DNA of 64,000 bases, from assembly GCF_003096075.1 (NCBI RefSeq), contig NZ_CP015449.1, positions 620,001-684,000 of the forward strand. Direction: 5' to 3'. The notes under the pieces were generated by a model that had not been told where the DNA came from, did no database searches, and saw nothing but the letters and a program-made list of their open reading frames with translations. The DNA is from Dietzia lutea. GTDB lineage: Bacteria > Actinomycetota > Actinomycetes > Mycobacteriales > Mycobacteriaceae. The position numbers and the translations under genes are program-made. Below, piece by piece: positions 30,550-44,557 of this stretch (position 1 is the stretch's first letter; every line of letters begins with the position of its first letter).

Positions 30550-32196
30550 TCAGAGCGTCGCGTCGTCGACGACCGCGTCGGCCGACGGGGCGGCGGCCGG
30601 GCGCGCCTCTGGTGTGGGCGCCGCGCCGGCCCCGGTCTCACCGGCCGACCGCCGCACGGTGTCGCCCGCCTGCCACCGATCAGCGAGGGTGGGGCGCAGG
30701 GGCCGGGCGAGCTGGGTCATGATCCCGCGGCCGCGCAGCTCGACGCTCTGGCCCAGCACCCACCGGGCGGCCTCCGGGTCGTCCGCGTGGTGGATCGTCG
30801 CCGCCGAGGCCAGCACGTGCCCCTGCTCCATCTTGGCCAGGGTCGTCAGGCGCGCGGCCTCGTTGACCGGGTCACCGATCACCGTGTACTCGAACCGCTT
30901 GGCGTGACCGATGTGCCCGGCGATGACGGTCCCGTAAGACACGCCGATGCCCGCCGAGAGCGGCGACAGCTCGGCGAGGCGGCTCTGCAGCGCGCGGGCG
31001 GCGCGCAGAGCGCGGCCGGCCTCGTTGTCCACCTCGAGGGGCGCGCCGAAGACCGCGAGGAGCGCGTCACCCTGAAACTTGTTGATGTACCCGCCGTTGG
31101 AGTCGACGGCCTCGACCGCGATCCGGAAGAACTCGTTGAGCACGGACACGACCTCGGCCGGCTCGTGCGCTGCCGCGAACTCGGTCGACCCGGTGAGGTC
31201 GACGAACAGCACCGCGACCTCCCGCTCCTGTCCACCGAGCTCGGTGCCGCGCTCGAGGGCGTTGCGGGCGACGTCCTCGCCGACGTAGCGGCCGAACAGG
31301 TCCTGGATGGCCTCGCGTTCCTGCAGGCCGGTCACCATCTCGTTGAAGCCCTGCGCGAGGCGGCCGATCTCCGAGCTGTCGTAGATCGTCACGCGGGTCT
31401 CGAGGTCGCCCTGCTTGACGCGGCTGACGCCCGCCTGCATCTCGCGGACGGGGTCGGCGATCGAGTCCGAGACAAGCCCCATGCCGATCGCGCCGGCGAT
31501 CACGGCGACGCTCGCCAGGACCGCCAGCGCGACCAGGATGTGCACGGGATCGTCACCGAACAGTCCGAACCAGTGGCCGGTGAGGATGAGCAGGATGCCC
31601 GCGATCGGGATGACCGTCGTCAGCGCCCAGCCCAGGAAGATCCGACGCCGGACACCGGGGACGTGCCGGTTGGCCGGCACGCCGCTGGCCAACGCGCGCA
31701 CGGTGATCGGCCGCATGATCCGCTCGGCCTGGAGATAGGAGATGAGGACTGTCGTGCTCCCGCCCAAGAGGCTCGTCACCGCCACGATGAGAGCCAGCCT
31801 GGGGGAGTGGCCGACGTTGACGGCGACGAACAGCAGGGTCCCGATCACCCACATCGCGCCCGAGATGATCGCCTGGTGGAACGGCAGGCGCAGGGTGCGG
31901 CGACGGATGGCGCCGTCGAACTCCGCCCCCGCCCGGTCCACCCTGAGTACGGGTAACAGGAGCAGGGTCGAGGCGATGACGCCGCCGATGAAGGCCAGCA
32001 AGAGGTAGCCGATGAAGAGGTACTGGTTGAGGAACCGGAACTCGTCGAGGTCCAGGAACCGGTCCATCGGCAACACGAAGCGCAGGAACGAGAAGACGAA
32101 GACCGCGCCGATGATGTTGGCCTGCACCATCGTCAGCGCATACACGGGCCAGGGGGTGGCCCACAGCCACCTGAACAACCTGACCCAGCGCTCCAT
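30550..32196 (-). CDS. Membrane class III adenylate cyclase with HAMP domain (Rv3645-like)
   Basis: A 548-residue protein. Six hydrophobic spans lie in residues 20-275 (for example IIGAVFVFSFLRFVLPM and VHILVALAVLASVAVIAGAIGMG). A HAMP linker follows (IADPVREMQAGVSRVKQGDLETRV), and then a class III cyclase domain: metal Asp in VLFVDLTGSTEF, INKFQGDALLAVFGAP with substrate Lys and second Asp, and YTVIGDPVNEAARL with the transition-state Asn and Arg. The 50-residue Ala/Pro-rich tail is unordered. In M. tuberculosis Rv3645 is a major source of cAMP and is tied to fatty-acid response. With crp in the same window it completes a cAMP signalling pair. Confidence 0.93.
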   Translation of the reverse strand: MERWVRLFRWLWATPWPVYALTMVQANIIGAVFVFSFLRFVLPMDRFLDLDEFRFLNQYLFIGYLLLAFIGGVIASTLLLLPVLRVDRAGAEFDGAIRRRTLRLPFHQAIISGAMWVIGTLLFVAVNVGHSPRLALIVAVTSLLGGSTTVLISYLQAERIMRPITVRALASGVPANRHVPGVRRRIFLGWALTTVIPIAGILLILTGHWFGLFGDDPVHILVALAVLASVAVIAGAIGMGLVSDSIADPVREMQAGVSRVKQGDLETRVTIYDSSEIGRLAQGFNEMVTGLQEREAIQDLFGRYVGEDVARNALERGTELGGQEREVAVLFVDLTGSTEFAAAHEPAEVVSVLNEFFRIAVEAVDSNGGYINKFQGDALLAVFGAPLEVDNEAGRALRAARALQSRLAELSPLSAGIGVSYGTVIAGHIGHAKRFEYTVIGDPVNEAARLTTLAKMEQGHVLASAATIHHADDPEAARWVLGQSVELRGRGIMTQLARPLRPTLADRWQAGDTVRRSAGETGAGAAPTPEARPAAAPSADAVVDDATL

Positions 32197-32268
32197 CGGT
32201 CCAAGCCTAGTTCGCGCCGGTGCCGGTGGGGACTCAGGTGTGTCGGTCCGCGGGGATAAGGTGGGGCC

Positions 32269-33595: not shown

Positions 33596-33668
33596 GCCGC
33601 GTTAGCTCAGTCGGTAGAGCATTTCACTCGTAATGAAAAGGTCGTCGGTTCGATTCCGACACGCGGCT
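33596..33668 (+). tRNA. tRNA-Thr (anticodon CGT)
   Basis: A complete cloverleaf of 73 nt. The acceptor stem is GCCGCGT (33596-33602) with ACGCGGC (33661-33667) and discriminator T. The D arm is AGCTCAGTCGGTAGAGC. The anticodon arm is TTTCA-CTCGTAA-TGAAA, and the T arm is GTCGG-TTCGATT-CCGAC. The anticodon CGT reads ACG (Thr). CCA is not encoded. It follows holB as in M. tuberculosis and marks the left border of the catabolic block. Confidence 0.97.
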
Positions 33669-33675
33669 CTACAGG

Positions 33676-33712: not shown

Positions 33713-33753
33713 TTGTGCAGATGTGTCTCCTGCCTGGTATTTCGCCTCTTCCG

Positions 33754-33783
33754 TTGACAGTGACTCATGTCACTAAGTAGCCT
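33754..33783 (+). promoter_or_regulatory. Promoter of the TRAP transporter operon
   Basis: A consensus -35 TTGACA (33754-33759) is followed after 18 bp by TAGCCT (33778-33783) as -10. It lies 53-82 bp before the dctP start codon. Its spacer contains the palindrome at 33759-33774. Confidence 0.65.
33759..33774. promoter_or_regulatory. CRP-like or other dyad operator in the TRAP promoter
   Basis: AGTGACTCATGTCACT is a perfect dyad. It equals the CRP/GlxR consensus TGTGAN6TCACA at all positions except the two outermost. It fills the spacer between the -35 and -10 boxes, so a bound protein would block RNA polymerase. The neighbouring IclR protein is an alternative binder. Confidence 0.6.
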
Positions 33784-33835
33784 CGGGCCAGACCGGTACG
33801 TATATACATAGCCCGTTCCCTAAGTAAGGAATTTC

Positions 33836-34987
33836 ATGGCTACCTTTTCCTGGCCTGGCACGGCCCGCCCCCGCTCGAGCGGACCGCCTCCGCGGGCGGA
33901 GTCGAAGCGCAGACGCACTGTGTCCAGAGTCTCTGGTGCCGCCGTTACCGGCCTCGCGATCGCCCTGGTGGCCGGATGTGCGGGTTCGTCGACCGAAAGC
34001 GCTGATCTGACCGAGGTGCGGATCGGCGACAGCTTTGCCGCGACCCACCCCATCGGGCGCAGTGGCACTGCCGCGTTCATGGAGGTCCTCGAGAGCAAGG
34101 GGCCGGACGCAGGAATGGACATCGAGTACTACGCGTCGGGCCAGCTCGGTAAGCAGCGAGACATGCCGGCGGTGCTACGGACTGGGATCGCCCAGATCGC
34201 CGCTGTGTCGCCCGCCTATGTCGGAACCCAGCTCCCGATGTCGAACGTCGGGGATCTCCCCGGCTTCACTCAGGACCCGTGCGTGGGCGGGGACGCGATG
34301 CTCGAGATCATGCAGCCGGGGACCACGCTGTTTGAAGCGGAGCTCGCGCCGCAGGATGTCAGGCCGCTCTGGGTGGCGTACATCCCCGGTTACGAGGCGA
34401 TGTCCGGGGCGTTCCCGGTCGACTCGGTGAAGGCCCTGCAAGGCAAGATCATGCGATCGACCGGAGGCGCCGCAGACCGGGTCGTGGACCAGGCCGGGGC
34501 CGCGGGCGTCTCCATGCCGCTAGGTGACATGTACGAGGCCATCTCGCGCGGAACCGTCGAAGGGACCCTCGCCAGCCCGATCAGCATCACTCCGTACAGC
34601 CTCGAGGAAGTGATCTCCTACTCCACGGACGGCGCCCGTCTCGGCTCGTTCACGGTCACCTACTCGGTCTCCAACTCGGTCTGGAACGAGATGACCCCGG
34701 ATCAGCAGGCGGTTCTCGCGGAGGCCTCCGAACTCGCCCAGGTGGAGGTGTGCGAAGAACTCACGCGGTCGATGGACGAGTCCAAACAGGCAATGCGCGA
34801 TGCGGGAGTCCAGATGGTGGCGGTCACCGACGCGCAGCGTCCCGAGTGGGAGGCGCTCGCCGCACCGGTCCGAGAGGCGTGGGTGGACGATCTCGAAAGT
34901 ATCGGGCTCCCAGCCCAGCAAGTTCTGGACGACTTCACCGCAGCGCTCGCACGCGCTGAGTCCGAGCACGGGGGAGAACGATCATGA
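33836..34987 (+). CDS. dctP: TRAP transporter substrate-binding lipoprotein DctP
   Basis: A 383-residue extracytoplasmic solute receptor. A long basic N-terminus (residues 1-32) is followed by a lipoprotein signal with lipobox LVAGC, Cys near residue 45. The DctP fold shows EVRIGDSFAATHPIGRSG, YYASGQLGKQRDMPAVLRTGIAQIA, VDSVKALQGKIMRSTGG and the specificity-helix region AISRGTVEGTLASPISI. The ligand is unknown; TRAP receptors usually bind carboxylates through a conserved Arg, here probably Arg in KIMRSTGG. AAGGAA stands 4 bp before ATG 33836. It is the first gene of dctPQM, overlapping dctQ by 4 bp. Confidence 0.92.
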   Translation: MATFSWPGTARPRSSGPPPRAESKRRRTVSRVSGAAVTGLAIALVAGCAGSSTESADLTEVRIGDSFAATHPIGRSGTAAFMEVLESKGPDAGMDIEYYASGQLGKQRDMPAVLRTGIAQIAAVSPAYVGTQLPMSNVGDLPGFTQDPCVGGDAMLEIMQPGTTLFEAELAPQDVRPLWVAYIPGYEAMSGAFPVDSVKALQGKIMRSTGGAADRVVDQAGAAGVSMPLGDMYEAISRGTVEGTLASPISITPYSLEEVISYSTDGARLGSFTVTYSVSNSVWNEMTPDQQAVLAEASELAQVEVCEELTRSMDESKQAMRDAGVQMVAVTDAQRPEWEALAAPVREAWVDDLESIGLPAQQVLDDFTAALARAESEHGGERS

Positions 34988-35616
34988 GCAACAACGTTCC
35001 CGAGGTGATCGTCCCGCGGCAGGGTTCAACTCCGGCGGTCCGGACGCCATTCGGCTACATCACCGAAGATCACTCACGACTCGACAAGTTCCAGAACGGG
35101 ATTTCCGGGGTCTGCGCCGCCATCGCGAGCGTGGCGATCGTCGCAATCGCCGCACTGACCGCCCTCGAAGTGTTCACCAGAACGGCCTTCGGCTCTCCGC
35201 TCGGATGGAACGTCGGGTTCGTCGAGCAGTACCTGATGATGGCGGTCGCGTTCTTCGGGACGGTGACCGCATACCGCGCCGGAGCGCACGTCGCGGTGGT
35301 GACGATCTTCGAGAAGATGCCGCCGGTCGTCCGAAAGCTGCTCTTGGTGTCGACCTACCTCATCGTCCTCGCGGGGCTCGTCCTGCTGACGTATTCGGGG
35401 ACGCGCGCCGCTCATTTCTCGTTCGTCACCGCCGAGATGCCTCCTCCGGGAATGGCGGAACTGCCCTGGCCCACCTGGTGGTGGAAGACGATCATCCCCA
35501 CCGCCAGCGTGCTCGGTCTGGTCGTGGTGGCGATCGATCTCTACCGCGAGATCACGGCGCCTCTGACCAGCGTGGTCACTGACTACGAGCCCGGCAACTT
35601 CCAGGAAGAAGGCTGA
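34984..35616 (+). CDS. dctQ: TRAP transporter small membrane subunit DctQ
   Basis: A 210-residue protein with four membrane spans (for example VAIVAIAALTALEVFTRT, YLMMAVAFFGTVTAYRAG, LLVSTYLIVLAGLVLLTY and TASVLGLVVVAIDLYREI) and DctQ-typical WNVGFVEQYLMM. It pairs with DctM in the membrane. It has an unusually long cytoplasmic N-terminus of about 40 residues. It starts inside the dctP stop (ATGA) and ends 1 bp before dctM. Confidence 0.9.
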   Translation: MSNNVPEVIVPRQGSTPAVRTPFGYITEDHSRLDKFQNGISGVCAAIASVAIVAIAALTALEVFTRTAFGSPLGWNVGFVEQYLMMAVAFFGTVTAYRAGAHVAVVTIFEKMPPVVRKLLLVSTYLIVLAGLVLLTYSGTRAAHFSFVTAEMPPPGMAELPWPTWWWKTIIPTASVLGLVVVAIDLYREITAPLTSVVTDYEPGNFQEEG

Positions 35617-35617
35617 T

Positions 35618-36901
35618 ATGACCGCGCTCGCCGTAGTAGTACTGCTGCTCCTTCTCATCCTTATCCGGGTGCCGGTGTCTTTCGCCATCCTGGGCGCCGG
35701 ACTGGTCGGGCTCCTGATGATCGGCGGCGGCAACGTCGTCGACGGCGTCATGCAGACCGTGCCCGCGACATCGGTGATGAGCTACTCGCTGTCAGCCGTG
35801 CCGCTGTTCATCCTCATGGCGCACCTGCTGATGCTCTCCGGGCTACTCGACTCCCTCTTCGACGCGGCCCGGGCGCTCGTGGGCCGCATCCGCGGCGGAA
35901 CCGCCGTGGCATCGATCGGCGCCGGAACCGCCTTCGCGTCGGTGTCCGGTTCGTCGACCGCAGCGGCTGCGACCCTGGCCCAGACCTCGACGCTCAAGAT
36001 GATCGACGAGGGGTACAGCCCCAGGACCGCGAGTGGCCTCGTCGCTGTAGTGGGAACGCTGGCCGCGATGATCCCGCCCTCGATCATTCTCGTCTTCTAT
36101 GCGATCACCGCCGAGGTGAGCGTCGGCGACCAGCTCGTCGCCGGAGCGGTGCCGGGTGTGATCATCGCCTGTGGTCTCGTGGTGATGCTCTACGTCACGA
36201 TGATGCGTAACCCAGACACGGTGCCCCGTGGCGAGCCCGCCACCTGGGGGCAGAAGGGAAGGGCGCTGCTGACCGCCGCGCCGCTGGTACTCGTTTTCGC
36301 GGCCGTGGTCGGCTCCATCTACCTCGGTCTGGCGACCCCGACCGAAGCCGCCGCGCTGGGAAGTATCGCCGCGTTGATACTGGTGATCGCTCGCAAGCGG
36401 TTCACTATGGTCGCCGTCGGGCACACGCTCGTCGAGACCACCAAGTCCACAGCGATGATCTTCGCGATCATCATCGGCGCCCATGTGTTCGGCCACTTCC
36501 TCACCGAATCCCGCGTTACGCCGAGCCTCGTAGCGTGGGTGGGTGATCTTCCGGTGCCTGCGGTCGTCATCATGGTCTTCATCGGGTCGATCTACGTGGT
36601 GCTCGGGTTCTTCATGGACCAGATCGCCATCATCGCGCTCACCGTCCCCGTAGTGCTGCCGCTCGTGGAGGCGCTCGGATACGACCCCATCTGGTTCGGC
36701 GTGTTCATGGTGCTGCTCGCAGAGGTCGGACTCGTCACGCCGCCGATGGGGCTCAACGTGTTCGTGGTGGCCCGATCCGCGGGGCAGCGGGTCGAGGAAG
36801 TGTTCCGGGGGGCGTTCCCATACGTTGTCGCCATGCTGGTGACGGCGCTTGTCTTCCTCATATTCCCGCAGGTCGTTCTGTGGGTGCCGCAATCCATGTA
36901 G
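35618..36901 (+). CDS. dctM: TRAP transporter large membrane subunit DctM
   Basis: A 427-residue protein with about 12 hydrophobic spans that forms the Na+- or H+-coupled translocation channel with DctQ. Family features include VSFAILGAGLVGLLM, GGTAVASIGAGTAFASVSGSSTAAAATLAQT, MIPPSIILVFYAI, and LLAEVGLVTPPMGLNVFVV near the C-terminus. It starts 1 bp after the dctQ stop. A 68-bp gap separates it from the crotonase, which may still be co-transcribed. Confidence 0.94.
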   Translation: MTALAVVVLLLLLILIRVPVSFAILGAGLVGLLMIGGGNVVDGVMQTVPATSVMSYSLSAVPLFILMAHLLMLSGLLDSLFDAARALVGRIRGGTAVASIGAGTAFASVSGSSTAAAATLAQTSTLKMIDEGYSPRTASGLVAVVGTLAAMIPPSIILVFYAITAEVSVGDQLVAGAVPGVIIACGLVVMLYVTMMRNPDTVPRGEPATWGQKGRALLTAAPLVLVFAAVVGSIYLGLATPTEAAALGSIAALILVIARKRFTMVAVGHTLVETTKSTAMIFAIIIGAHVFGHFLTESRVTPSLVAWVGDLPVPAVVIMVFIGSIYVVLGFFMDQIAIIALTVPVVLPLVEALGYDPIWFGVFMVLLAEVGLVTPPMGLNVFVVARSAGQRVEEVFRGAFPYVVAMLVTALVFLIFPQVVLWVPQSM

Positions 36902-36969
36902 GGCTGTAGTCGACACTCCCGGTCCCGGCCGGCCCGGCCGTGATCCTGAAAAGAAAGTTGAATTGAGAT

Positions 36970-37776
36970 ATGTCTTCCAATGATTCCGTGCTCGTCCGGC
37001 GTGACGGACACATCGAGACGTGGACCCTCAACCTCCCCGACAGTCGCAATCCAATCTCCGACGCGTCGATCGTGGAGGCGCTCTGTGCTCGCGTGGCCGC
37101 GGTTAACGCGGACCGCGAGGTCCGGGCGGTGGTGCTTACCGGGGCCGGATCGGCGTTCTCGGCCGGCGGCAACGTTAAGGACATGGTCGAACGGAACGGA
37201 ATGTTCGGTGGCAGCCCCTACGAGCTACGCGACGGATACCGCGGAGGTATCCAGCGGATCCCCCGCGCGCTATATCACTGCGAGGTGCCGGTGATCGCCG
37301 CCGTGAACGGTCCCGCGGTGGGGGCAGGATGCGACCTGGCCATGATGTGTGACCTGAGGGTCGCCTCCAGCCGCGCCTTTTTCGCCGAGAGCTTCGTTCA
37401 GCTCGGAATCATCCCGGGTGACGGAGGTGCCTGGCTGCTCACCAAAGCGATCGGCCCCATGCGGGCGGCGGAGATGGCGCTCACCGGCGACCGCGTGCCC
37501 GCAGAGAAGGCGCTGGAGTGGGGCATGGTCAACGACGTCGTGGAGCCGGAACAGCTCCTGGAGGCGGCCACCTCGCTCGCGGCGAGGGTCGCCAAGAATC
37601 CCCCCCACTCCGTCCGCATGGCCAAGAAGCTCCTTCGGGAATCGCAGCATCAGTCGCTTGAGTCCCTCCTGGAACTCTCGGCTGCGATGCAGGCCCTCGC
37701 TCATCACACGCAGGATCACCGTGAGGCCTTGGACGCGTTCATGGAGAAGCGCGCCGGTGATTACAGCGGCAACTGA
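36970..37776 (+). CDS. Crotonase-family enoyl-CoA hydratase/isomerase with altered acid residues
   Basis: A 268-residue crotonase-fold protein. The oxyanion-hole segments are GAGSAFSAGGNVKDM and NGPAVGAGCDLAMMCDLRV. Relative to rat mitochondrial hydratase, Glu144 is replaced by Asp122 (GCD) and Glu164 by Phe142 (AESFVQLG), with the 20-residue spacing kept. Classical two-Glu hydration is therefore unlikely. Isomerase, dienoyl-CoA isomerase, lyase or hydrolase activity is possible. The C-terminus (MEKRAGDYSGN) is typical. It lies between dctM and the convergent iclR gene, within the catabolic block. Confidence 0.87.
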   Translation: MSSNDSVLVRRDGHIETWTLNLPDSRNPISDASIVEALCARVAAVNADREVRAVVLTGAGSAFSAGGNVKDMVERNGMFGGSPYELRDGYRGGIQRIPRALYHCEVPVIAAVNGPAVGAGCDLAMMCDLRVASSRAFFAESFVQLGIIPGDGGAWLLTKAIGPMRAAEMALTGDRVPAEKALEWGMVNDVVEPEQLLEAATSLAARVAKNPPHSVRMAKKLLRESQHQSLESLLELSAAMQALAHHTQDHREALDAFMEKRAGDYSGN

Positions 37777-37788
37777 GCACTAGAGATT

Positions 37789-37817
37789 GGGAGGGGCGGC
37801 TGCTGGCCGCCCCTCCC
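37789..37817. terminator. Bidirectional terminator between crotonase and iclR genes
   Basis: GGGAGGGGCGGC (37789-37800), loop TGCTG and GCCGCCCCTCCC (37806-37817) form a perfect 12-bp stem between two convergent genes. There is no T run. Confidence 0.7.
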
Positions 37818-37824
37818 GTCCTTG

Positions 37825-38607
37825 TCAGCGCATCCCCCAGTCCTGCGCGTAGCGCAGGAGGATCTCGGCGAGATCGTCACTCCGCGCCGCGATCTCCTCG
37901 GCTTTTCCGATGACACCCACCGTCGCGATGGTGCGCCCCCGCTCACGCAGGGCCACCGAGACGCCGTCGCCGCCGTCCACCGCGACGCGGGGCGAGACAC
38001 AGACCCCGGTTTCGCGCAGCTCGTCGAGGGACCGCAGGAACTGCTCGACGATGTCGGCCTCGTTGGCCGGGCGGGAATTCAGGTATGCCCAGATGTCGCG
38101 TCGTTCCCGGTCGGCGAGCAGGAGCCATCCCGCAGAGGTTCGCAGCAGTGATCGGCGGAGCCTGTTCTCGGCGAGGTAGGCGTAGTGCGGATCCGTCGAG
38201 AGGTGGTCCACGTAGAACAGGTCGTCACCGACATCGGTCGATAGTGCCGTTGTCAACCCGGTTTCGGCGTGCAACGCTTCCAGCTGTTCGCGACTGACGT
38301 TGGTCACCGGAGGTCGACCCGCGATGACGTTCAGAAGATACGGGGCGGTGCCCAGCGTGTAGACGCGATCCCGTTCGTCGAGGTAACCGACGGCGACCAG
38401 GCCGTTGATCAGTCCTTGGGTGGAGCTCACCGGGGCGTCGAGGGCCTTGGCGATGGCGGTGAGGGTCAGCCCGGACCGCGAGCGGGCGACCAGCTCCATG
38501 ATGGCCGCGACGCGGTCGACCATCCTGTGCCGCGGACGCTCCGGGGCCTTCTCCACACTCAGTCGCCCGACTGGGCCGCTGCCGTCAGCTGTAGTGCGTT
38601 CCGTCAT
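37825..38607 (-). CDS. IclR-family transcriptional regulator
   Basis: A 260-residue regulator. The N-terminal winged helix contains MVDRVAAIMELVARSRSGLTLTAIAKALDAPVSSTQGLINGLVAVGYL. The C-terminal IclR effector domain spans residues 105-255 (ALHAETGLTTALSTDVGDDLFYVDHL, GWLLLADRER, SVALRERGRTIATVGVIG). IclR proteins sense small organic acids or aromatics and usually control adjacent catabolic genes. It is divergent from the acyl-CoA dehydrogenase operon and convergent with the crotonase, so it is the likely local regulator of both arms. Confidence 0.9.
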   Translation of the reverse strand: MTERTTADGSGPVGRLSVEKAPERPRHRMVDRVAAIMELVARSRSGLTLTAIAKALDAPVSSTQGLINGLVAVGYLDERDRVYTLGTAPYLLNVIAGRPPVTNVSREQLEALHAETGLTTALSTDVGDDLFYVDHLSTDPHYAYLAENRLRRSLLRTSAGWLLLADRERRDIWAYLNSRPANEADIVEQFLRSLDELRETGVCVSPRVAVDGGDGVSVALRERGRTIATVGVIGKAEEIAARSDDLAEILLRYAQDWGMR

Positions 38608-38756
38608 GGCGTAACAGTATCGGCAGCAGCGGCTCCGCGGAGCCTCATGCTCCAGCAGCTACAAAAACACGTATACGAATCCGCTATTGCGTAAAGTGGG
38701 GCCGTGTGTGACTCTAGGGTGGTGACACCGATCACCCGTTGCCCAGAGGAGGCCCC
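38608..38756. promoter_or_regulatory. Divergent iclR / acyl-CoA dehydrogenase control region
   Basis: This 149-bp AT-richer region holds a perfect 14-bp palindrome GGCTCCGCGGAGCC (38631-38644) and the 8-bp palindrome CGTATACG (38670-38677) next to CGCTATTGCG, all candidate IclR sites. Further right is the CRP-like dyad GGTGACACCGATCACC (38721-38736), matching TGTGAN6TCACA except at the outer bases. It ends 20 bp before the ATG, so bound Crp would probably repress. GATACT on the minus strand near 38617 could be the iclR -10. Confidence 0.55.
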
Positions 38757-39929
38757 ATGAGTTCGACCCTCGCACCGCCGACGACGGCGTCCACCGACGC
38801 GATGAACTCACTTCGCGCGGAGGTCCGCGCTTTCCTGGCGGAGGAGATCGCCGCCGGCCGCCTCACCCCGTGGATCGACACGTGGCTGACACGCTGGGAC
38901 GAGGACTTCACCCGCCGGCTGGCCGAACGCGGCTGGGTGGGCATCACCATCCCCACCGAATATGGCGGGCGGGGGCGAACTCACCTCGAGCGTTTCGTCG
39001 TCACCCAGGAACTCCTGTCGGTCGGGGCGCCGGTCGCGGCGCAGTGGGTCGCGGACCGACAGATCGCCCCCTCACTGCTCGCGTACGGAACCGAGGAGCA
39101 GAAGCGTGAGTACCTGCCGCGTATCGCCTCCGGGGAGTGCTGCTTCGGGATCGGGATGAGCGAGCCGGATTCCGGCTCGGACCTGGCCAGCGTCCGCACC
39201 AAGGGCGTCCGGGTGGACGGCGGCTGGTTGGTGACCGGCACCAAGGTGTGGACGTCCGGGGCCCAGCACGCGGAGGCGTTTTTCGCACTCGCGCGTACGT
39301 CACCCCTGGACACCTCCGACAGGCACGCGGGCCTGAGTCAGTTCATCGTCGACCTCCGCAGCGAGGGGGTGACCATTCGGCCGATCATCTCGCTGTCCGG
39401 GGACCATCACTTCAACGAGGTCGTCATGGAGGAGGTCTTCGTACCCGACTCCATGGTGTTCGGGACCATCGGTCGCGGTTGGGAGCAGGTGAACTCCGAG
39501 CTGGCCTTCGAGCGCAGCGGCCCCGAGCGCTTCCTCTCCTCGTTCCGGCTCTTCGCCGCCGAGATCGGCGCGATCGCCGAAGGGCGACTCGCCGAACGTA
39601 GTGACCTGGGCCGATCGGTCGCGCGGATGGCGGGTCTGCACGCGCTCAGCCAAAACGTCGCCGGTGCGCTCCAGCGCGGTGAGAAGGCGGACACGGCCGC
39701 TGCGTTGGTCAAGCTCCTCGGAACGACGACCGAGGGCGACCTGGTGGACCACGTCTCGGCCCGGGTGGGCGATGAGTTCGTGCCCGGCGACACCACCGAT
39801 GCCCCCGGCGCCGCCGAGATCCAGAGCCTGCTCCGGGCAGGCCTTCATCAACGCCCCGGCTTCACTCTCCGTGGCGGGACCAACGAGATTCTGCGCGGTG
39901 TGATCGCGCGGGGACTGGGGATGCGATGA
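38757..39929 (+). CDS. Acyl-CoA dehydrogenase, large subunit of a heteromeric pair
   Basis: A 390-residue flavoprotein. The start is ATG 38757 (AGAGGAGG 5 bp upstream). It has ERGWVGITIPTEYGGRG, CCFGIGMSEPDSGSDLASV (FAD and substrate contact), GTKVWTSGAQHAEAFFALAR, ELAFERSGPERFLSSF and the C-terminal GGTNEILRGVIARGLGM. Where SCAD/MCAD have the C-terminal catalytic Glu (YEGT), this has GGT. A Glu in the FERSGPERF helix is the likely base, as in IVD/LCAD-type and FadE29-like subunits. The stop overlaps the next dehydrogenase gene by 4 bp, so the two are made in step. The substrate is unknown. Confidence 0.9.
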   Translation: MSSTLAPPTTASTDAMNSLRAEVRAFLAEEIAAGRLTPWIDTWLTRWDEDFTRRLAERGWVGITIPTEYGGRGRTHLERFVVTQELLSVGAPVAAQWVADRQIAPSLLAYGTEEQKREYLPRIASGECCFGIGMSEPDSGSDLASVRTKGVRVDGGWLVTGTKVWTSGAQHAEAFFALARTSPLDTSDRHAGLSQFIVDLRSEGVTIRPIISLSGDHHFNEVVMEEVFVPDSMVFGTIGRGWEQVNSELAFERSGPERFLSSFRLFAAEIGAIAEGRLAERSDLGRSVARMAGLHALSQNVAGALQRGEKADTAAALVKLLGTTTEGDLVDHVSARVGDEFVPGDTTDAPGAAEIQSLLRAGLHQRPGFTLRGGTNEILRGVIARGLGMR

Positions 39930-41020
39930 CTGAGCAGCAGACGAGCACGGACAGCGTCGACCTGACCGTCGACCCGGACGTGGAAGCGATGATCGCGGAC
40001 GTTCTGGCCGGCTACTCGGGCCCTTCGGTGGAACCCGAGCACGTGGCGGTGTGGAACACCCTCAGGGAAGTGGGGCTTGCGCGGCTCACCGCGCCGGAGG
40101 AAACCGGAGGCAGCGGGGCCGGATGGGCCGAGGCCGCCGCGCTGCTCCGCGCCGCTGCTGCGGCGGGTGTCGCCGTACCCTTCGCCGAAACCGACCTGCT
40201 GGCGGGGCCGTTGCGGCGGGCGTCGGGGATCGACGACGCCACCGATGCCACGTCCACTGTCGCGGTTCTGGGGGCCGAAGGCACCGCACATTCGGTGCCC
40301 TGGGCAGGGGAGACCGACGGCGTGGTGTGTGTCCGACGGACCGCGGACGGCACCTTCGAGGTGGCTGACGCGGTGACCTCAGACCTGACGATCACCCCGG
40401 TCGAGGCGGTGTCGGCCGTCCCTCACGCGGACGTCTCAGTGGCTGGGGAACTCGACTGGCGCCCCGTGGATTCCACGGCCGTGCGGGGTCATGTCCTACG
40501 CGGTGCCCTCGTTCGCTCACTCCAGTGCGTGGGCGCGATGGAGGGGATGCTGGACCTCGCGATCGAGCACACGACCGAGCGCAACCAGTTCGGACGGTCA
40601 CTGGCCAAGTTCCAGTCCGTGCAGAACCTCGTCGTCGACCTGGCCGCGGAGACCGTGCTCGCGCGCGCGGCGGTCGACTCCGCCCTCACCGACGCGATCG
40701 CCACAAACCAGACGGGGGAACGCTCCGGGTACTCGGTTGCGGTCGCCCGCAGCGTCGTGTCCCAGGCGCTGGCCGTGACCGTGCGCAACGCGCACCAGGT
40801 CCACGGCGCGATCGGCACCACCCATGAACACACATTGCACCGGCGTACCCTCCCGGCGCTCCAGTGGAGAGGAGAGTTCGGCTCACCCTTCTTGTGGGAG
40901 ACGGCACTCACCCGATCCGCGATCGCCGGGGGGATGAGCGGCGCATGGCCGATGGTGGTCGAGGGCACCGACCTCGGGGACGTCGCCGGCACCTGGCTCG
41001 ACACCATCACCGGCCGCTGA
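39926..41020 (+). CDS. Acyl-CoA dehydrogenase, small partner subunit
   Basis: A 364-residue acyl-CoA-dehydrogenase-fold protein with a divergent, Ala-rich N-terminal half (EEVGLARLTAP-type core reads REVGLARLTAPEETGGSG). The C-terminal FAD-contact region is well kept: AIEHTTERNQFGRSLAKFQSVQNLVVDLAAE and VHGAIGTTHEHTLHRRTLPALQW. Lacking the MSEPxxGSD segment, it probably cannot act alone. Coupled pairs of this kind form alpha2-beta2 enzymes in actinomycete steroid and branched-acyl catabolism (FadE28-FadE29, ChsE4-ChsE5). Complex formation here is inferred from architecture and the ATGA overlap. Confidence 0.85.
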   Translation: MTEQQTSTDSVDLTVDPDVEAMIADVLAGYSGPSVEPEHVAVWNTLREVGLARLTAPEETGGSGAGWAEAAALLRAAAAAGVAVPFAETDLLAGPLRRASGIDDATDATSTVAVLGAEGTAHSVPWAGETDGVVCVRRTADGTFEVADAVTSDLTITPVEAVSAVPHADVSVAGELDWRPVDSTAVRGHVLRGALVRSLQCVGAMEGMLDLAIEHTTERNQFGRSLAKFQSVQNLVVDLAAETVLARAAVDSALTDAIATNQTGERSGYSVAVARSVVSQALAVTVRNAHQVHGAIGTTHEHTLHRRTLPALQWRGEFGSPFLWETALTRSAIAGGMSGAWPMVVEGTDLGDVAGTWLDTITGR

Positions 41021-41034
41021 GAATCGCGCCCGTG

Positions 41035-42321
41035 ATGACCCCTCTCGTGCGGCTGTTCATCGCAGCCGTTCTCATCAACGGCGCGTACGACGCCGTCCGG
41101 GTGGCGGTGTCTTATCGCGTCCTCGCCCTGGGCGGCGACGCCACCACCGTGGGGATCGTCGCGGGCACCTTCGCGCTCCTGCCGATGCTGCTGGCGTTGC
41201 ACTTCGGACGCCTCGTCGACCGCTCCGGTAGCCGTGGGGTCTTCTTCACCGGGATCGCGCTATCCGCGCTCGCGGTCTCCGGCGCCGCGCTCTCGCCTTC
41301 GATCTGGGTGCTAGCCGTGTCGAACACGGTCCTGGGGCTCGGCCAGATCATGACGATGATCGGCGCACAGGGTTTCGTCATGGAACTCACGGAGAGGTCC
41401 CGCCACGTCAACGGGTTCGCCGCGTTCACCCTCGCGGTGTCCCTCGGGCAGTCCGTCGGAACACCGGCCATAGGTCTCCTGCTCGGGGGCGGTGGCACGG
41501 CGGGGCCGGTAAAAACGACCTTCCCGTTGTTCGTCATGGCGGCGGTCATCGTGATCGCCCTACCGTTCGCCTTGAGCCTCCCACGCCGGGCACCGGGTGG
41601 CGGAGTGGCCCGCCCCGAGGGAGGGGCGTCCATGATCGCCCTCCTGCGGCGGCCGGGCATGATCCCAGCGATTTACGCCGCCCTGGTGGTGATCACCGGC
41701 GTCGACTTGGTGACCGCATATATGCCCGTGATCGGGGAGTCCGTGGGTCTGAGTCCGATGGTGGTGACTCTGCTCGTGGCGGTGCGCTCCGTGTTCTCGA
41801 TGATCTCGAGAGCAGCGCTGCCGTGGATTCTCCGGAAGTGGCCGCAGAGAACGATCCTCACACTCACGCCGCTGGTCACGGTTCCTGCCGCGGTGACGCT
41901 CGGCCTTGGCGAGCAGACGGTGGTGTTGGGCGTCGCGCTCGCGGTGATCGGCTTCTTCTGGGGCCTCAACCAGCCGGTGACCATGAACTGGGTGACGGCG
42001 GTGGCGCCGGCGGGGGACCGCTCGGCCGCACTGTCACTCCGGCTGACGGGAAACCGGGCGGCCCAGGTGGTCATCCCGCTCGGAGCGGGAGCGGTGGCGG
42101 CGGTAGCCGGACCGGGAAGCGTGTTCCTGCTCCTGGGCGGGGTGTCAGCCATCTCGGCCGTCTCGACGAGCGTGTCGTTGAGAAGAACCCCGATCGCTGA
42201 GCTCGAGACGGCGGCGCCTCCCTCAGCGGGTGAGCGGTCCGGGGACCCCCTGGCCACCGAACAGACCTGCCCGACGACCTCTCGGACGCGCTCGGACACA
42301 CAGAAAACGACAGGAAGTTGA
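41035..42321 (+). CDS. MFS transporter
   Basis: A 428-residue major-facilitator protein with about 12 spans. It has GRLVDRSGSRGVFF, the loop 2-3 motif (GxLaDrxGrr type), and a central loop near residues 190-205 (PRRAPGGGVARPEGG). The start is ATG 41035, or GTG 41032 one codon earlier. The last 35 residues are hydrophilic. It follows the dehydrogenase pair by 14 bp and precedes the CoA-transferase by 7 bp, so it belongs to this operon. It may export an intermediate or import a related substrate; the sequence does not say which. Confidence 0.86.
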   Translation: MTPLVRLFIAAVLINGAYDAVRVAVSYRVLALGGDATTVGIVAGTFALLPMLLALHFGRLVDRSGSRGVFFTGIALSALAVSGAALSPSIWVLAVSNTVLGLGQIMTMIGAQGFVMELTERSRHVNGFAAFTLAVSLGQSVGTPAIGLLLGGGGTAGPVKTTFPLFVMAAVIVIALPFALSLPRRAPGGGVARPEGGASMIALLRRPGMIPAIYAALVVITGVDLVTAYMPVIGESVGLSPMVVTLLVAVRSVFSMISRAALPWILRKWPQRTILTLTPLVTVPAAVTLGLGEQTVVLGVALAVIGFFWGLNQPVTMNWVTAVAPAGDRSAALSLRLTGNRAAQVVIPLGAGAVAAVAGPGSVFLLLGGVSAISAVSTSVSLRRTPIAELETAAPPSAGERSGDPLATEQTCPTTSRTRSDTQKTTGS

Positions 42322-42328
42322 GACACAG

Positions 42329-43615
42329 ATGAACACCACGAACCCCGGCTCCGGCTTCGACGACGACAACACGCTGCCCCCTCGCTCGGGCGCGCTTACC
42401 GACATCCGGGTCGTGGACCTCTCCCGTGTGCTCGCGGGACCACTGTGCGGACAGATGCTCGCGGACCACGGCGCGGACGTCATCAAGGTCGAGGCTCCCA
42501 GCGGAGACGACACGCGTAGTTGGGGCCCACCATTCGTGCGGGAGGGCCACAGCGCCTACTTCGACGGCCTCAACCGCAACAAACGGAATATCAGCATCGA
42601 TCTTCGCGAGAAGGAGGGTCAGGCCTTGCTGGGTCGAATGCTGGAAGAAGCGGACGTCGTCATCGAGAACTTCAAGGCCGGCACCCTGGAACGGTGGGGG
42701 CTGGCGGACGACGTGATCGCCGAACGGTTCCCGCGGCTCATCCACTGCCGCATCACCGGGTACGGCGTCGACGGCCCGCTGGGAGGGGCGCCGGGATACG
42801 ACGCCGTCCTGCAGGGGCTGTCCGGCCTGATGAGCATCAACGGGGTGCCTGATGGCCCTGCAATGCGGATCGGCATCCCGCTCGTGGACATCGTCACCAG
42901 CCTCAACGCCATGAACGGCATCCTCATGGCGCTCCATGTGAGAGCCGCGACCGGGCGTGGACAACTCGTCGACCTAGCACTGCTCGACAACGCCATATCG
43001 ATCCTTCACCCCCACGCGGCCAAGTGGTTCGCCACGGGCGAGCCCCCGGAACGAACTGGCGTCGCACACCCGACGATTTGCCCGTACGAGACCTTCACCT
43101 GCGCCGACGGTCCGTTCTTCATCGGTGCTGGAAACGATCGTCAATTCCGCGCGCTCGCCGTCGCGTTGGACGCACCCGCCCTCGTGGAGGATCCCAGGTT
43201 CCTCACCAACCCCGACCGACTAGCGCACGCCGAGGAGCTGAGGTCGATTCTGGGCGGCTTGGTCGGCGGGGTGACCCGTGAGGACCTCGCGGATCGCCTC
43301 CGCGCGGCGGGAGTGCCGTCCGGGGCGGTCAATCACGTCGGGGAAGCACTGTCGATGCCGCAGGTGCTGCACCGCGAGATGGTCGTCGAACGCGACGGGT
43401 ACCGCAGCATGGGTATCCCCGTGAAGCTCTCCGGGACGCCGGGGGCGGTTCGCTTCGGTCCGCGCGCCAGGGGAGCCGATACCGACTCGGTGCTGGCGGA
43501 GTTCGGCGTCGATCCGGAGCAGGCTGACGCACTGCGACGCGCGGGCGTCGTGGACTCGAGCTCGGCCGCGGAAGGTCTATCGCGCGAGGAGGCGTCGAGC
43601 AACGTCACCCACTGA
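42329..43615 (+). CDS. CaiB/BaiF family (family III) CoA-transferase
   Basis: A 428-residue enzyme. Family features are IRVVDLSRVLAGPLCGQMLADHGADVIKVE, TRSWGPPF-type loop (DDTRSWGPPFVREG), FDGLNRNKRNISIDLR, VVIENFKAGTLERWGL and YDAVLQGLSGLMSINGVPDG. GQLVDLALLDNAI carries the catalytic Asp (about residue 220) that forms the acyl anhydride. Family III enzymes transfer CoA between carboxylic acids such as formate/oxalate, carnitine and succinate with citramalate or benzylsuccinate. The start is ATG 42329 (AGGAAG 8 bp upstream). As the last gene of the operon it would activate the imported acid. The donor is unknown. Confidence 0.9.
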   Translation: MNTTNPGSGFDDDNTLPPRSGALTDIRVVDLSRVLAGPLCGQMLADHGADVIKVEAPSGDDTRSWGPPFVREGHSAYFDGLNRNKRNISIDLREKEGQALLGRMLEEADVVIENFKAGTLERWGLADDVIAERFPRLIHCRITGYGVDGPLGGAPGYDAVLQGLSGLMSINGVPDGPAMRIGIPLVDIVTSLNAMNGILMALHVRAATGRGQLVDLALLDNAISILHPHAAKWFATGEPPERTGVAHPTICPYETFTCADGPFFIGAGNDRQFRALAVALDAPALVEDPRFLTNPDRLAHAEELRSILGGLVGGVTREDLADRLRAAGVPSGAVNHVGEALSMPQVLHREMVVERDGYRSMGIPVKLSGTPGAVRFGPRARGADTDSVLAEFGVDPEQADALRRAGVVDSSSAAEGLSREEASSNVTH

Positions 43616-43630
43616 TCCGCCGTCCGCGAT

Positions 43631-43669: not shown

Positions 43670-44557
43670 GTGGAATTCCTCCTCATCGCCGCAGTGATCG
43701 CGGTGGCCGTCGCTGTGATCTCCCGCAGCCAGAACAAGGGTCAGACGCAGCTGGAGGCGCACCACAACCGTCATCTCGAGGACTACCGCGCGGAGGCGTC
43801 CCGCTGGATCGAGCGGCTCGGCGGCCAGGTGTTCAATCTCGACGGCACGGACGAGGCGTCCAAGCAGGCGATGGCCGACGCCTCCGAGCGCTACACCGCC
43901 GCCGTCGCGGAGCTGGAGAAGGCGCGCACGCCCGTGCAGGCGCAGCTGGCCAAGGACACCGCGCTGGAGGGCCTGTACTACGTGCGCGCCGCCCGCTCGG
44001 CGATGGGCCTCGACCCCGGTCCGGAGCTGCCGCCGACTCCCGGCCAGGACCGCGCCGGCCGGGTGACCGAGGACCGCGAGGTCGAGGTCGAGGGCCGCAA
44101 GATGAAGGCCGCCACCGACCCGAGCGACGAGACTCCGCACTACTACCCGGGTGGCGTCGTGGCGGGTCGCCCGGTGCCCGCGGGCTGGTATTCGGAGCCC
44201 TGGTGGGCGTCGGCGCTGGCCACGGGCGTGTGGATGATGGGCTCGATGATGATGTTCAACATGATGTTCGCCGGCATGGCGGGCGTCGGCTACTCCGGCG
44301 AGGACTTCGAGGCCGGGGTCGGCGAGGGCGGCGAGGACGTCAGCGACCTCGGCGGGGGCGAGGGCGGTGACGGCGAGGGCTTCCTCGACGGCGGGTTGTT
44401 CGGCGGCGACGGTGGCGAGGGCGGAGACGCCGGTGGTGACGGCGGTGGCTTCTTCGACGGCGGGCTGTTCGGCGGCGACGGCGGGGGAGACGGCGGCGGC
44501 GGGTTCCTCGACGGGGGCCTGTTCGGCGGCGACGGCGGCGGCTTCTTCGACTTCTGA
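43670..44557 (+). CDS. Hypothetical membrane protein with glycine-aspartate repeat tail
   Basis: A 295-residue protein from GTG 43670 (GAGAAAGG 7 bp upstream). It has an N-terminal span (FLLIAAVIAVAVAVIS), a charged helical region (residues 25-140, probably coiled), a Met/Trp-rich hydrophobic segment (WWASALATGVWMMGSMMMFNMMFAG), and a C-terminal tail of about 85 residues with the unit FLDGGLFGGDGG or FFDGGLFGGDGG repeated three times and ending GGGFFDF. The tail is acidic, lacks Pro and is likely flexible or calcium-binding. The family is not recognised. It lies outside the catabolic operon by composition. Confidence 0.75.
   Translation: MEFLLIAAVIAVAVAVISRSQNKGQTQLEAHHNRHLEDYRAEASRWIERLGGQVFNLDGTDEASKQAMADASERYTAAVAELEKARTPVQAQLAKDTALEGLYYVRAARSAMGLDPGPELPPTPGQDRAGRVTEDREVEVEGRKMKAATDPSDETPHYYPGGVVAGRPVPAGWYSEPWWASALATGVWMMGSMMMFNMMFAGMAGVGYSGEDFEAGVGEGGEDVSDLGGGEGGDGEGFLDGGLFGGDGGEGGDAGGDGGGFFDGGLFGGDGGGDGGGGFLDGGLFGGDGGGFFDF

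What the first reader, a model, noticed from the sequence alone, without database searches (positions are those of the whole stretch)
33713..43620. Uncharacterised catabolic block: TRAP import, CoA-transfer, heteromeric desaturation, odd crotonase
Directly after tRNA-Thr and its terminator lies a 9.9-kb block (dctPQM, crotonase, iclR, two coupled acyl-CoA dehydrogenases, MFS, CaiB-type CoA-transferase) absent from the M. tuberculosis order that the flanks follow. Together the parts make a full route for an imported acid: uptake, CoA loading, alpha-beta desaturation and further conversion. I do not recognise this combination. TRAP transporters are not common in this order, and the substrate is open. 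The position at a tRNA suggests an inserted block, although no integrase or repeated tRNA end was found.
Basis: partly seen in the sequence, partly recalled or inferred. Interest (0 to 1): 0.75.

Follow-up and report, generated by a model that had tools for sequence, protein, structure and literature searches.

The report
Co-regulated acid import and degradation genes
A block of nine genes in a bacterium of the genus Dietzia looks like a jointly switched kit for importing and starting to break down one unknown organic acid; related kits recur in a few relatives and contain an enzyme that lacks the usual active-site residues, so its chemistry is open.

Summary
The block is real and more than a chance neighbourhood: dctPQM (TRAP importer), ech (crotonase), iclR, acdA-acdB (paired acyl-CoA dehydrogenases), an MFS transporter and caiB (CoA-transferase). 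It is not one inserted island: ech, usually with acdA-acdB, sits at this tRNA-Thr slot in 17 of 23 genus genomes, while TRAP, MFS, iclR and caiB come and go. The window's copy was exchanged (neighbouring proteins 96-98% identical to D. cinnamea-group relatives, block proteins 62-86%). Full or near-full blocks with TRAP recur in two other Dietzia, Rhodococcus sp. 1168, Mycobacterium sp. NAZ190054 and two further family genomes. New here: an operator of two 16-bp sites 20 bp apart lies upstream of dctP and between iclR and acdA, and tracks iclR (24 of 24 loci with it; 0 of 16 tested without). This predicts one IclR regulon. The crotonase lacks both glutamates of ordinary hydratases. Most likely function: uptake, CoA loading and desaturation of a ring-containing, probably alicyclic, acid. 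Hints: DctP's nearest solved folds bind aromatic acids, and two Rhodococcus plasmids have flavin (Baeyer-Villiger-type) monooxygenases where Dietzia has TRAP. The substrate remains unproven.

The parts
33596..33669 (+). tRNA-Thr (CGT); left-flank DNA identity with relatives that share the slot stops at its last base
   Evidence: ARAGORN, Rfam; blastn alignment ends at 33669 against 4 of 5 relatives tested (L049, L047, L044, L052) and at 33674 against L058
33676..33711 (+). terminator-like stem (14 bp, 5-base loop) with T run after the tRNA
   Evidence: read from the sequence; not listed by the scan
33754..33783 (+). likely dctP promoter: TTGACA, 18-base spacer, TAGCCT, with GTGA-N6-TCAC (CRP/GlxR-like, name recalled) at 33760-33773
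   Evidence: GTGA-N6-TCAC beside TTGAC in 5 of 8 dctP promoters looked at (window, L042, L043, L073, L204), absent in L206, L207, L173; the consensus scan found no promoter
33796..33831 (+). predicted IclR operator upstream of dctP: two 16-bp sites, starts 20 bp apart (33796 and 33816); the second reaches to 4 bases before the start codon
   Evidence: best and third-best hits in 64 kb of a matrix built from other loci without any dctP site
33836..34987 (+). dctP, TRAP substrate-binding protein (lipoprotein-like Cys48)
   Evidence: PF03480 104.8 bits; Cys48 invariant in 8, Arg207 invariant in 35 sequences; model and fold searches
34984..35616 (+). dctQ, TRAP small permease
   Evidence: PF04290 76 bits
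35618..36901 (+). dctM, TRAP large permease
   Evidence: PF06808 280 bits, TIGR00786 above cut-off
36970..37776 (+). ech, crotonase-fold enzyme without the two hydratase glutamates
   Evidence: NF006699 424 bits above cut-off 354, the only match over cut-off among 25 in this genome; active-site alignment
37825..38607 (-). iclR, IclR-family regulator
   Evidence: PF09339 and PF01614 above cut-off
38659..38694 (.). predicted IclR operator between iclR and acdA: sites at 38659 and 38679
   Evidence: second and fourth best hits in 64 kb of the matrix without dctP sites
38757..39929 (+). acdA, catalytic (alpha-like) acyl-CoA dehydrogenase subunit
   Evidence: nearest solved: 6wy8/6wy9 Tcur3483 (E about 1e-44) and 4x28_A; Glu aligned with theirs
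39926..41020 (+). acdB, beta-like acyl-CoA dehydrogenase subunit, overlapping acdA by 4 bases
   Evidence: weak matches include 6wy8_A Tcur3481 and 4x28_D, though an ordinary dehydrogenase, 4l1f, scores best; acdA-acdB adjacent in the relatives
41035..42321 (+). MFS transporter
   Evidence: PF07690 117.5 bits
42329..43615 (+). caiB, class III CoA-transferase
   Evidence: PF02515 397 bits; nearest solved 4ed9, then 10uh, YfdE 4hl6, SUGCT 9br6

Best explanation
The block is an IclR-controlled uptake-and-activation unit for one carboxylic acid. DctPQM imports the acid; CaiB moves CoA onto it from an acyl-CoA donor; AcdA-AcdB, as a heteromeric dehydrogenase with a roomy site, puts in the alpha-beta double bond; Ech then does a step other than ordinary hydration (isomerisation, lyase or hydrolase chemistry), and general beta-oxidation enzymes coded elsewhere finish the job. 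The MFS protein probably moves the acid or a pathway product. The IclR protein, sensing the acid or its CoA ester, acts at two promoters (dctPQM-ech and iclR / acdAB-mfs-caiB) through a tandem pair of 16-bp sites set 20 bp apart. The acid most likely carries a ring and is probably alicyclic. Shown by sequence: gene identities, gene linkage across genera, the shared operator, loss of the hydratase glutamates, exchange of the block. Inferred: order of reactions, AcdA-AcdB complex, IclR binding, ring-type substrate. Confidence: unit and co-regulation about 0.85; alicyclic ring acid about 0.4.
Against: Binding of IclR to the sites is not shown; the link is position and co-occurrence, and some second sites score low (0.5-1.6 in L044, L076, L088; L041 has none among its next three). 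DctP is only 15-22% identical to the aromatic-acid proteins, other binding proteins follow closely (5im2 37.5 and 4nap 36.1, ligands cut off in the titles; ectoine proteins 33.5-33.8; most others 31-33). CaiB is nearest to CoA-transferases that include those for small dicarboxylates, which points to a dicarboxylate instead. None of the nine genes is a 3-hydroxyacyl-CoA dehydrogenase or thiolase. Three of the 12 DctP-clade genomes have the transporter without this IclR unit (L208, L209, L211). A third plasmid read (L063, acdB 44.5%) has no caiB, iclR or monooxygenase of this kind annotated. L174 and L175 (iclR 37-38%) show only a marginal, different palindrome (2-8 of 100 shuffles).
Confidence: 0.55

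Rival explanations
1. The acid is a small or branched dicarboxylate (glutarate- or adipate-like): TRAP imports it, CaiB loads it with CoA from succinyl-CoA, and AcdAB desaturates the dicarboxyl-CoA.
For: CaiB's best NCBIfam match is succinate--glutarate CoA-transferase (339 bits) and human SUGCT is among its five best solved relatives; monooxygenase plus hydrolase plus aldehyde dehydrogenase next to the Rhodococcus copies could make a diacid from a cyclic ketone.
Against: The CaiB match is far below that family's cut-off of 750; AcdA matches the glutaryl-CoA dehydrogenase model weakly (99.7 bits, cut-off 470) and is nearer to steroid-type heteromers; DctP's nearest folds bind aromatic monocarboxylates.
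Confidence: 0.25
2. The acid is an aromatic one (cinnamate or phenylpropanoate type), imported as by TarPQM and shortened as its CoA ester.
For: Fold neighbours of DctP are TarP proteins with coumarate, cinnamate, ferulate and 4-hydroxyphenylacetate; TarPQM is named as an uptake system for lignin-derived aromatics in the title of PMC3610893 (title and abstract start seen in the listing).
Against: None of the nine genes is a ring hydroxylase or dioxygenase; Ech lacks the second glutamate that side-chain-cleaving crotonases keep (recalled for feruloyl-CoA hydratase-lyase; for Ech).
Confidence: 0.15
3. A single genomic island inserted at tRNA-Thr by an integrase.
For: Left-flank identity ends at the last base of the tRNA against 4 of 5 relatives (33669); GC 67.1% against 72.8%; the block sits elsewhere in three other Dietzia genomes.
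Against: ech is next to this tRNA/holB in 17 of 23 genus genomes; no integrase among the nine genes, no repeat of the tRNA end; the parts vary one by one between genomes.
Confidence: 0.07
4. The TRAP genes and the CoA genes are separate functions that merely share a regulator.
For: Most Dietzia have ech-acdA-acdB without TRAP; three relatives have the TRAP clade without the IclR unit (L208, L209, L211).
Against: Same operator architecture at both promoters in 8 of 8 loci with both genes; TRAP and ech-acdAB stand together in five genera (Dietzia, Rhodococcus sp. 1168, Mycobacterium sp. NAZ190054 and the genera of G806 and G888).
Confidence: 0.12

Closest known systems
ChsE4-ChsE5 and IpdE1-IpdE2 type alpha2beta2 acyl-CoA dehydrogenases (solved: 4x28, 6wy8/6wy9; these protein names for the entries are recalled)
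   Same: two adjacent genes; AcdA aligns over residues 21-395 of 396 with Tcur3483 and has Glu where 4x28_A and 6wy8_B have it; AcdB matches the partner chains. PMC11153573 (passages) states that the alpha subunit holds the catalytic Glu and the substrate site.
   Different: distant (acdA E 1e-39 to 1e-45; acdB E 1e-7 to 1e-8 to the partner chains, not its best matches); not an IpdE2 member (54.5 bits, cut-off 450)
ech-acdA-acdB trio of mycobacteria; echA13-fadE17-fadE18 of M. tuberculosis is the recalled counterpart
   Same: the three genes stand together in 17 mycobacterial loci without TRAP (for example M. gordonae L108: ech 60%, acdA 63%, acdB 47%); PMC3856593 (passage) lists fadE17, fadE18 and echA13 in one deletion, Rv1928c-Rv1936
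   Different: orthology with the M. tuberculosis genes was not tested (no copy fetched); the three mycobacterial loci of this kind tested (L101, L108, L139) lack iclR and the operator; L104 has TRAP but no iclR
PaaG-like crotonases (6sl9, 6sla, 6slb, 3hrx; the name PaaG for these is recalled)
   Same: best solved relatives after 7mcm; they too lack Glu at both hydratase positions in the alignment
   Different: PaaG model 180 bits against cut-off 345; the loop acid is one position on (PGDGG against PDSG)
TarPQM aromatic-acid TRAP importer
   Same: nearest solved folds of DctP
   Different: about 20% identity; the named hits are all actinobacterial genera (most of its 87 rows carry no name)
chcpca cluster for cyclohexane- and cyclopentanecarboxylate in Rhodococcus aetherivorans BCP1 (PMC5906575, passages)
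   Same: acid activation, two neighbouring acyl-CoA-dehydrogenase-type ORFs (ORF4, ORF5) and an enoyl-CoA hydratase, for alicyclic acids
   Different: uses a CoA ligase, badI/badH homologues and TetR regulators; its table lists no TRAP, CoA-transferase or IclR. Whether ORF4-ORF5 relate to AcdA-AcdB was not tested.

Membership tests
TRAP transporter (DctPQM type) | substrate-binding protein, small and large membrane subunits coded together | tested here: met
   PF03480, PF04290, PF06808 above cut-off in consecutive genes
TRAP transporter (DctPQM type) | conserved carboxylate-binding Arg (role recalled) | tested here: met
   Arg207 invariant in 35 sequences and aligned with an R in 7nr2, 4xfe, 4mco
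alpha2beta2 acyl-CoA dehydrogenase (ChsE/IpdE type) | paired subunit genes, Glu in the alpha chain at the 4x28_A / 6wy8_B position | tested here: met
   acdA and acdB overlap by 4 bases
alpha2beta2 acyl-CoA dehydrogenase (ChsE/IpdE type) | heterotetramer with FAD held by both subunits | not testable with these tools
   needs protein
IpdE2 (NF050027) | score over curated cut-off 450 | tested here: not met
   54.5 bits
canonical enoyl-CoA hydratase | two catalytic glutamates (positions recalled as 144 and 164 of the rat enzyme) | tested here: not met
   Asp and Phe in 10 of 10 orthologues that cover the site (an 11th, L061, is cut short); the control L104:869-1636 has both Glu, the second outside row, L062:13800-14570, only the second
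crotonase subfamily NF006699 | score over cut-off 354 | tested here: met
   424 bits
PaaG (TIGR02280) | score over cut-off 345 | tested here: not met
   180 bits
succinate--glutarate CoA-transferase (NF052585) | score over cut-off 750 | tested here: not met
   339 bits
class III CoA-transferase | PF02515 over cut-off | tested here: met
   397 bits
cyclohexanecarboxylate (bad/ali) pathway | cyclohexanecarboxyl-CoA dehydrogenase (TIGR03207, cut-off 575) | tested here: not met
   AcdA 66 bits
tRNA-targeted genomic island | integrase and repeated tRNA 3' end | tested here: not met
   no repeat in the window; none of the nine genes is an integrase; flanks beyond four neighbouring genes were not scanned for one
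IclR regulator of an adjacent catabolic operon | both IclR domains; a shared site at the promoters it would control | tested here: met
IclR regulator of an adjacent catabolic operon | binding of the regulator to the site | not testable with these tools
   needs protein and DNA

The most novel reading that the evidence does not exclude
The ech-acdA-acdB trio, found in mycobacteria, rhodococci and Dietzia without a substrate known to me, is the core of an alicyclic-acid pathway in which the crotonase without catalytic glutamates performs a reaction not yet described for this subfamily; the blocks with importer, CoA-transferase and one tandem-operator regulon show its natural entry point.
Probability: 0.25. 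Interest if true: 0.75.

Novelty: new variant of a known kind. Interest (0 to 1): 0.5.

Why it matters
The parts are known kinds, but the conserved combination, its rarity and the shared tandem operator define a discrete catabolic unit whose substrate can be found with a few binding and growth tests. The same enzyme trio stands without a transporter in 17 mycobacterial loci, so a substrate identified in Dietzia would give a chemical lead for that whole enzyme group and for a crotonase that cannot work as an ordinary hydratase.

Tried and rejected
Single-island reading: rejected on the slot census. Named substrate by family models: of the NCBIfam rows shown (for ech only 25 of 73 are shown), none of the equivalog models was over its cut-off; only three subfamily models were (NF037995, TIGR00786, NF006699).

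Literature (only the held library): no paper on this block was recognised in the listings (Dietzia with TRAP transporter: 3 papers; Baeyer-Villiger monooxygenase, Rhodococcus, acyl-CoA dehydrogenase, CoA transferase, SMP-30; at least 4 of 5: 1 review; Dietzia, cyclohexane, naphthenic acid, alicyclic; at least 2 of 4: 426 papers, 20 listed) or (TRAP transporter, IclR, CoA transferase, acyl-CoA dehydrogenase, Corynebacterium; at least 4 of 5: 1 review). (3 and 8 papers on echA13, fadE17, fadE18 or their Rv numbers) listed no paper that names a substrate in title or abstract start. Searches were background. PMC11667970 (one passage) only mentions predicted Mce3R motifs between Rv1935c and Rv1936.

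Other: the class-wide DctP search at E <= 1e-40 found only the window's own genome among 394. The consensus promoter scan found no promoter in the block. The named scan kept the best 80 of 179 relatives. Of 73 plasmid records with an AcdB match three were read (H1, H5, H8). Weaker DctP loci L176 and L177 (28-29%) were fetched and left out of the linkage count; L174 and L175 (39%) are outside that family sample. One search dropped fragments under 75% of the query (for example the broken acdB of L054). The operator sites that trained the matrix were picked by eye from promoter sequences; the window and L074, L076, L077, L078, L083, L086, L088, L132, L173, L204, L206, L207 were never in the training set. 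In one search twenty simulated 64-kb sequences reached 7.0-13.1 with the all-site matrix, where the window's sites score 23.1 (33796), 16.6 (38659), 12.8 (38679) and 10.4 (33816): only the first site of each pair stands clear alone, the second rests on the fixed spacing. The loose pattern does not match the acdA-side site. The CRP-like motif, first seen in 4 of 4 dctP promoters, is absent in 3 of the 4 added later.
Full report
What is there. The window lies in a 3.9-Mb genome. Several of its genus companions have contigs of the same length as named Dietzia contigs, and its flanks are closest to D. cinnamea and D. massiliensis (L049, L047) and G007 (L058). Between tRNA-Thr and orf43670 lie dctP, dctQ, dctM, ech, iclR (reverse), acdA, acdB, mfs and caiB. 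The neighbouring genes are topA, a HAMP/cyclase gene, a DNA polymerase III delta-type gene ('holB') and, beyond orf43670, a GmrSD_C protein ('hnh' in my scripts).

Evolution of the block. Among 23 genus genomes (G000-G022) an ech orthologue stands beside holB and this tRNA position in 17: the window, L044-L054 (11), L058, L186, L187, L188 and L189. Forms at the slot: ech-acdA-acdB alone (L045, L046, L048, L050, L051, L052, L053, L054, the last with a broken acdB match), ech-iclR-acdA-acdB-caiB (L044, L047, L049; L058 the same up to its contig end), the full block (window), and ech directly before orf43670 (L186). L187, L188 and L189 end at or inside the core. In three genomes (L041, L042, L043) the block lies elsewhere, with TRAP intact in L042 and L043 and only 39 residues of dctM left in L041; at their holB there is no ech (L191 and L193 run on to orf43670; L192 shows neither within 1.5 kb). 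G012 is divergent (holB 55-57%) and has no ech there; G018 and G019 gave no full holB match. Intact TRAP of this type is in 3 of 23.

Exchange. holB, the cyclase and orf43670 of the window are 96-98% identical to those of L047, L049 and L058, topA 97-98% and the GmrSD_C protein 93%, but the block is 84% (ech), 76-77% (iclR), 86% (acdA), 62% (acdB) and 84-85% (caiB); among L047, L049 and L058 themselves flank and block are all 96-100%. In DNA the left flank is 94.5-95.1% identical up to the end of the tRNA, identity resumes inside ech at 74-78%, and the stretch from caiB rightwards averages 86% with L049, so the right edge is less sharp than the left. In an acdA tree of 34 rows the window does not join L047, L049 and L058; it is a lone branch in a fork with the other Dietzia slot copies and two Rhodococcus copies (L062, L064), support 93/88, drawn open. 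I read this as replacement of the block, at its old site, by a diverged version from an unknown donor.

Recurrence. The named scan kept 80 of 179 loci. In these and three plasmid loci, blocks with TRAP are in L066 and L070 (Dietzia already counted), L073 (Rhodococcus sp. 1168, in full order, its CaiB only 33%) and L104 (Mycobacterium sp. NAZ190054, no iclR or mfs, CaiB 31%, with a PaaF-like hydratase, an acyl-CoA dehydrogenase and part of a CoA ligase resembling cyclohexanecarboxylate-CoA ligase at 288 bits, cut-off 792). Two Rhodococcus plasmids (L061, L062) and R. opacus L064 carry caiB, iclR, acdA and acdB at high identity but no TRAP. Beside them the annotated plasmids have an FAD monooxygenase (L062: Baeyer-Villiger type by its solved relatives; L061: FMO-like), an aldehyde dehydrogenase, and an SMP-30 protein in L062 or a lipase-like hydrolase in L061. 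A third plasmid, L063, has acdA-acdB without these. Of 401 family genomes 12 have this DctP clade: ech+acdAB beside it in 6 (G000, G015, G004, G806, G841, G888; G888 without mfs; G841 has the contig length of Rhodococcus sp. 1168), IclR+CaiB+one acyl-CoA dehydrogenase in 2 (G421, G975, whose contig lengths fit Corynebacterium anserum and Corynebacterium sp. 320), no IclR unit in 3 (G1036 with a 29% IclR match, G1053 with unlike CaiB and dehydrogenase genes, G943), undecidable in 1 (G1046).

Co-regulation. Promoter sequences showed a repeated 16-bp near-palindrome, nTACGTAn-nTACGTAn, and a second, looser copy starting 20 bp on. Scored on the window with a matrix from other loci and without any dctP site, the best hits are 33796 (20.8), 38659 (16.5), 33816 (13.2) and 38679 (11.1): both promoters, both with 20-bp spacing. 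A loose pattern for the site has 3 matches in the whole 3.9-Mb genome, one of them at dctP and none at acdA, and none for the reversed control. Leave-one-locus-out, all 24 loci with iclR at 45% identity or more have the site upstream of iclR and 23 of 24 the 20-bp partner among the next three hits, some at low score; all 8 dctP promoters in such loci have both; none of 16 acdA promoters tested in loci without iclR (best: 16 of 100 shuffles as good), and none of 3 dctP promoters without any iclR match, has it. Several of the 24 loci are close relatives, so they are fewer than 24 independent cases; 12 of them and the window were not used in training. Intermediate cases: L174, L175 (iclR 37-38%) and L208 (29%) have a marginal palindrome of another shape. 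GTGA-N6-TCAC, which resembles a CRP/GlxR site as I recall it, lies next to TTGAC in 5 of 8 dctP promoters (window, L042, L043, L073, L204) and is absent in L206, L207 and L173.

Enzymes. AcdA and AcdB match the two chains of solved heteromeric dehydrogenases, AcdB weakly and not best, and AcdA has Glu in AFERSG where 4x28_A and 6wy8_B have it in NHER. PMC11153573 (passages only) describes the alpha chain of such enzymes as holding the catalytic Glu and the substrate site. Ech belongs to NF006699, the only member above cut-off in this genome. All 10 orthologues that cover the site have Asp and Phe where the canonical control has Glu and Glu, with PGDGG kept; 7mcm, its closest solved relative, shows the same. 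So ordinary hydration is unlikely and the true reaction is open. CaiB falls among 4ed9, 10uh, YfdE and SUGCT.

Substrate. DctP was modelled at mean pLDDT 88. Its nearest solved folds by two aligners are mostly aromatic-acid TRAP proteins, at low identity and small margins. With the monooxygenase neighbourhood in Rhodococcus and the steroid-type dehydrogenase, this favours a ring-containing acid; the CaiB group pulls towards a dicarboxylate. I hold an alicyclic acid at 0.4, a dicarboxylate at 0.25 and an aromatic acid at 0.15.

Limits. Binding, complex formation and substrate are untested. The relation to echA13-fadE17-fadE18 is recalled; the texts seen only place those genes together (PMC3856593, passage) and put fadE17 and fadE18 in the Mce3R regulon (PMC10843139, passage).

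Noticed in passing
L059 8098-12566 (window genome, contig C1 near 2705000) and L060: A second, unrelated TRAP set (DctP 26%, DctM 38% to the block's) with an acyl-CoA dehydrogenase directly downstream; the same arrangement is in genome G002.
   Followed up: partly
window 30550-32205 and 33760-33773: A HAMP plus adenylate/guanylate cyclase gene lies in the conserved flank, about 1.5 kb from a dctP promoter with a GTGA-N6-TCAC motif (kept in 5 of 8 loci); cAMP control of the TRAP operon is possible.
   Followed up: partly
L041 7874-7990: Dietzia sp. NCCP-2495 (G010) keeps only the last 39 codons of dctM before ech: the TRAP genes look deleted.
   Followed up: partly
L186 2680-3474: Genome G001 has ech directly before orf43670, without acdA and acdB there: a lone crotonase may be useful by itself.
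   Followed up: no
L044 6457-7933 and L052 6825-8300: Between tRNA-Thr and ech two genomes carry a 274-283-residue gene (alpha/beta hydrolase by Pfam in L044; not scanned in L052) and a divergent 201-residue gene instead of TRAP.
   Followed up: partly
L062 13800-19449 and L061 17063-21074: A second Rhodococcus plasmid cluster beside the first: a crotonase-like gene and acyl-CoA dehydrogenase(s), with a CoA ligase and SMP-30 protein in L062 and a Baeyer-Villiger-type monooxygenase in L061.
   Followed up: partly
window 43670-44557: Conserved flank gene with a glycine-rich tail and no Pfam or NCBIfam match at E <= 0.001.
   Followed up: no
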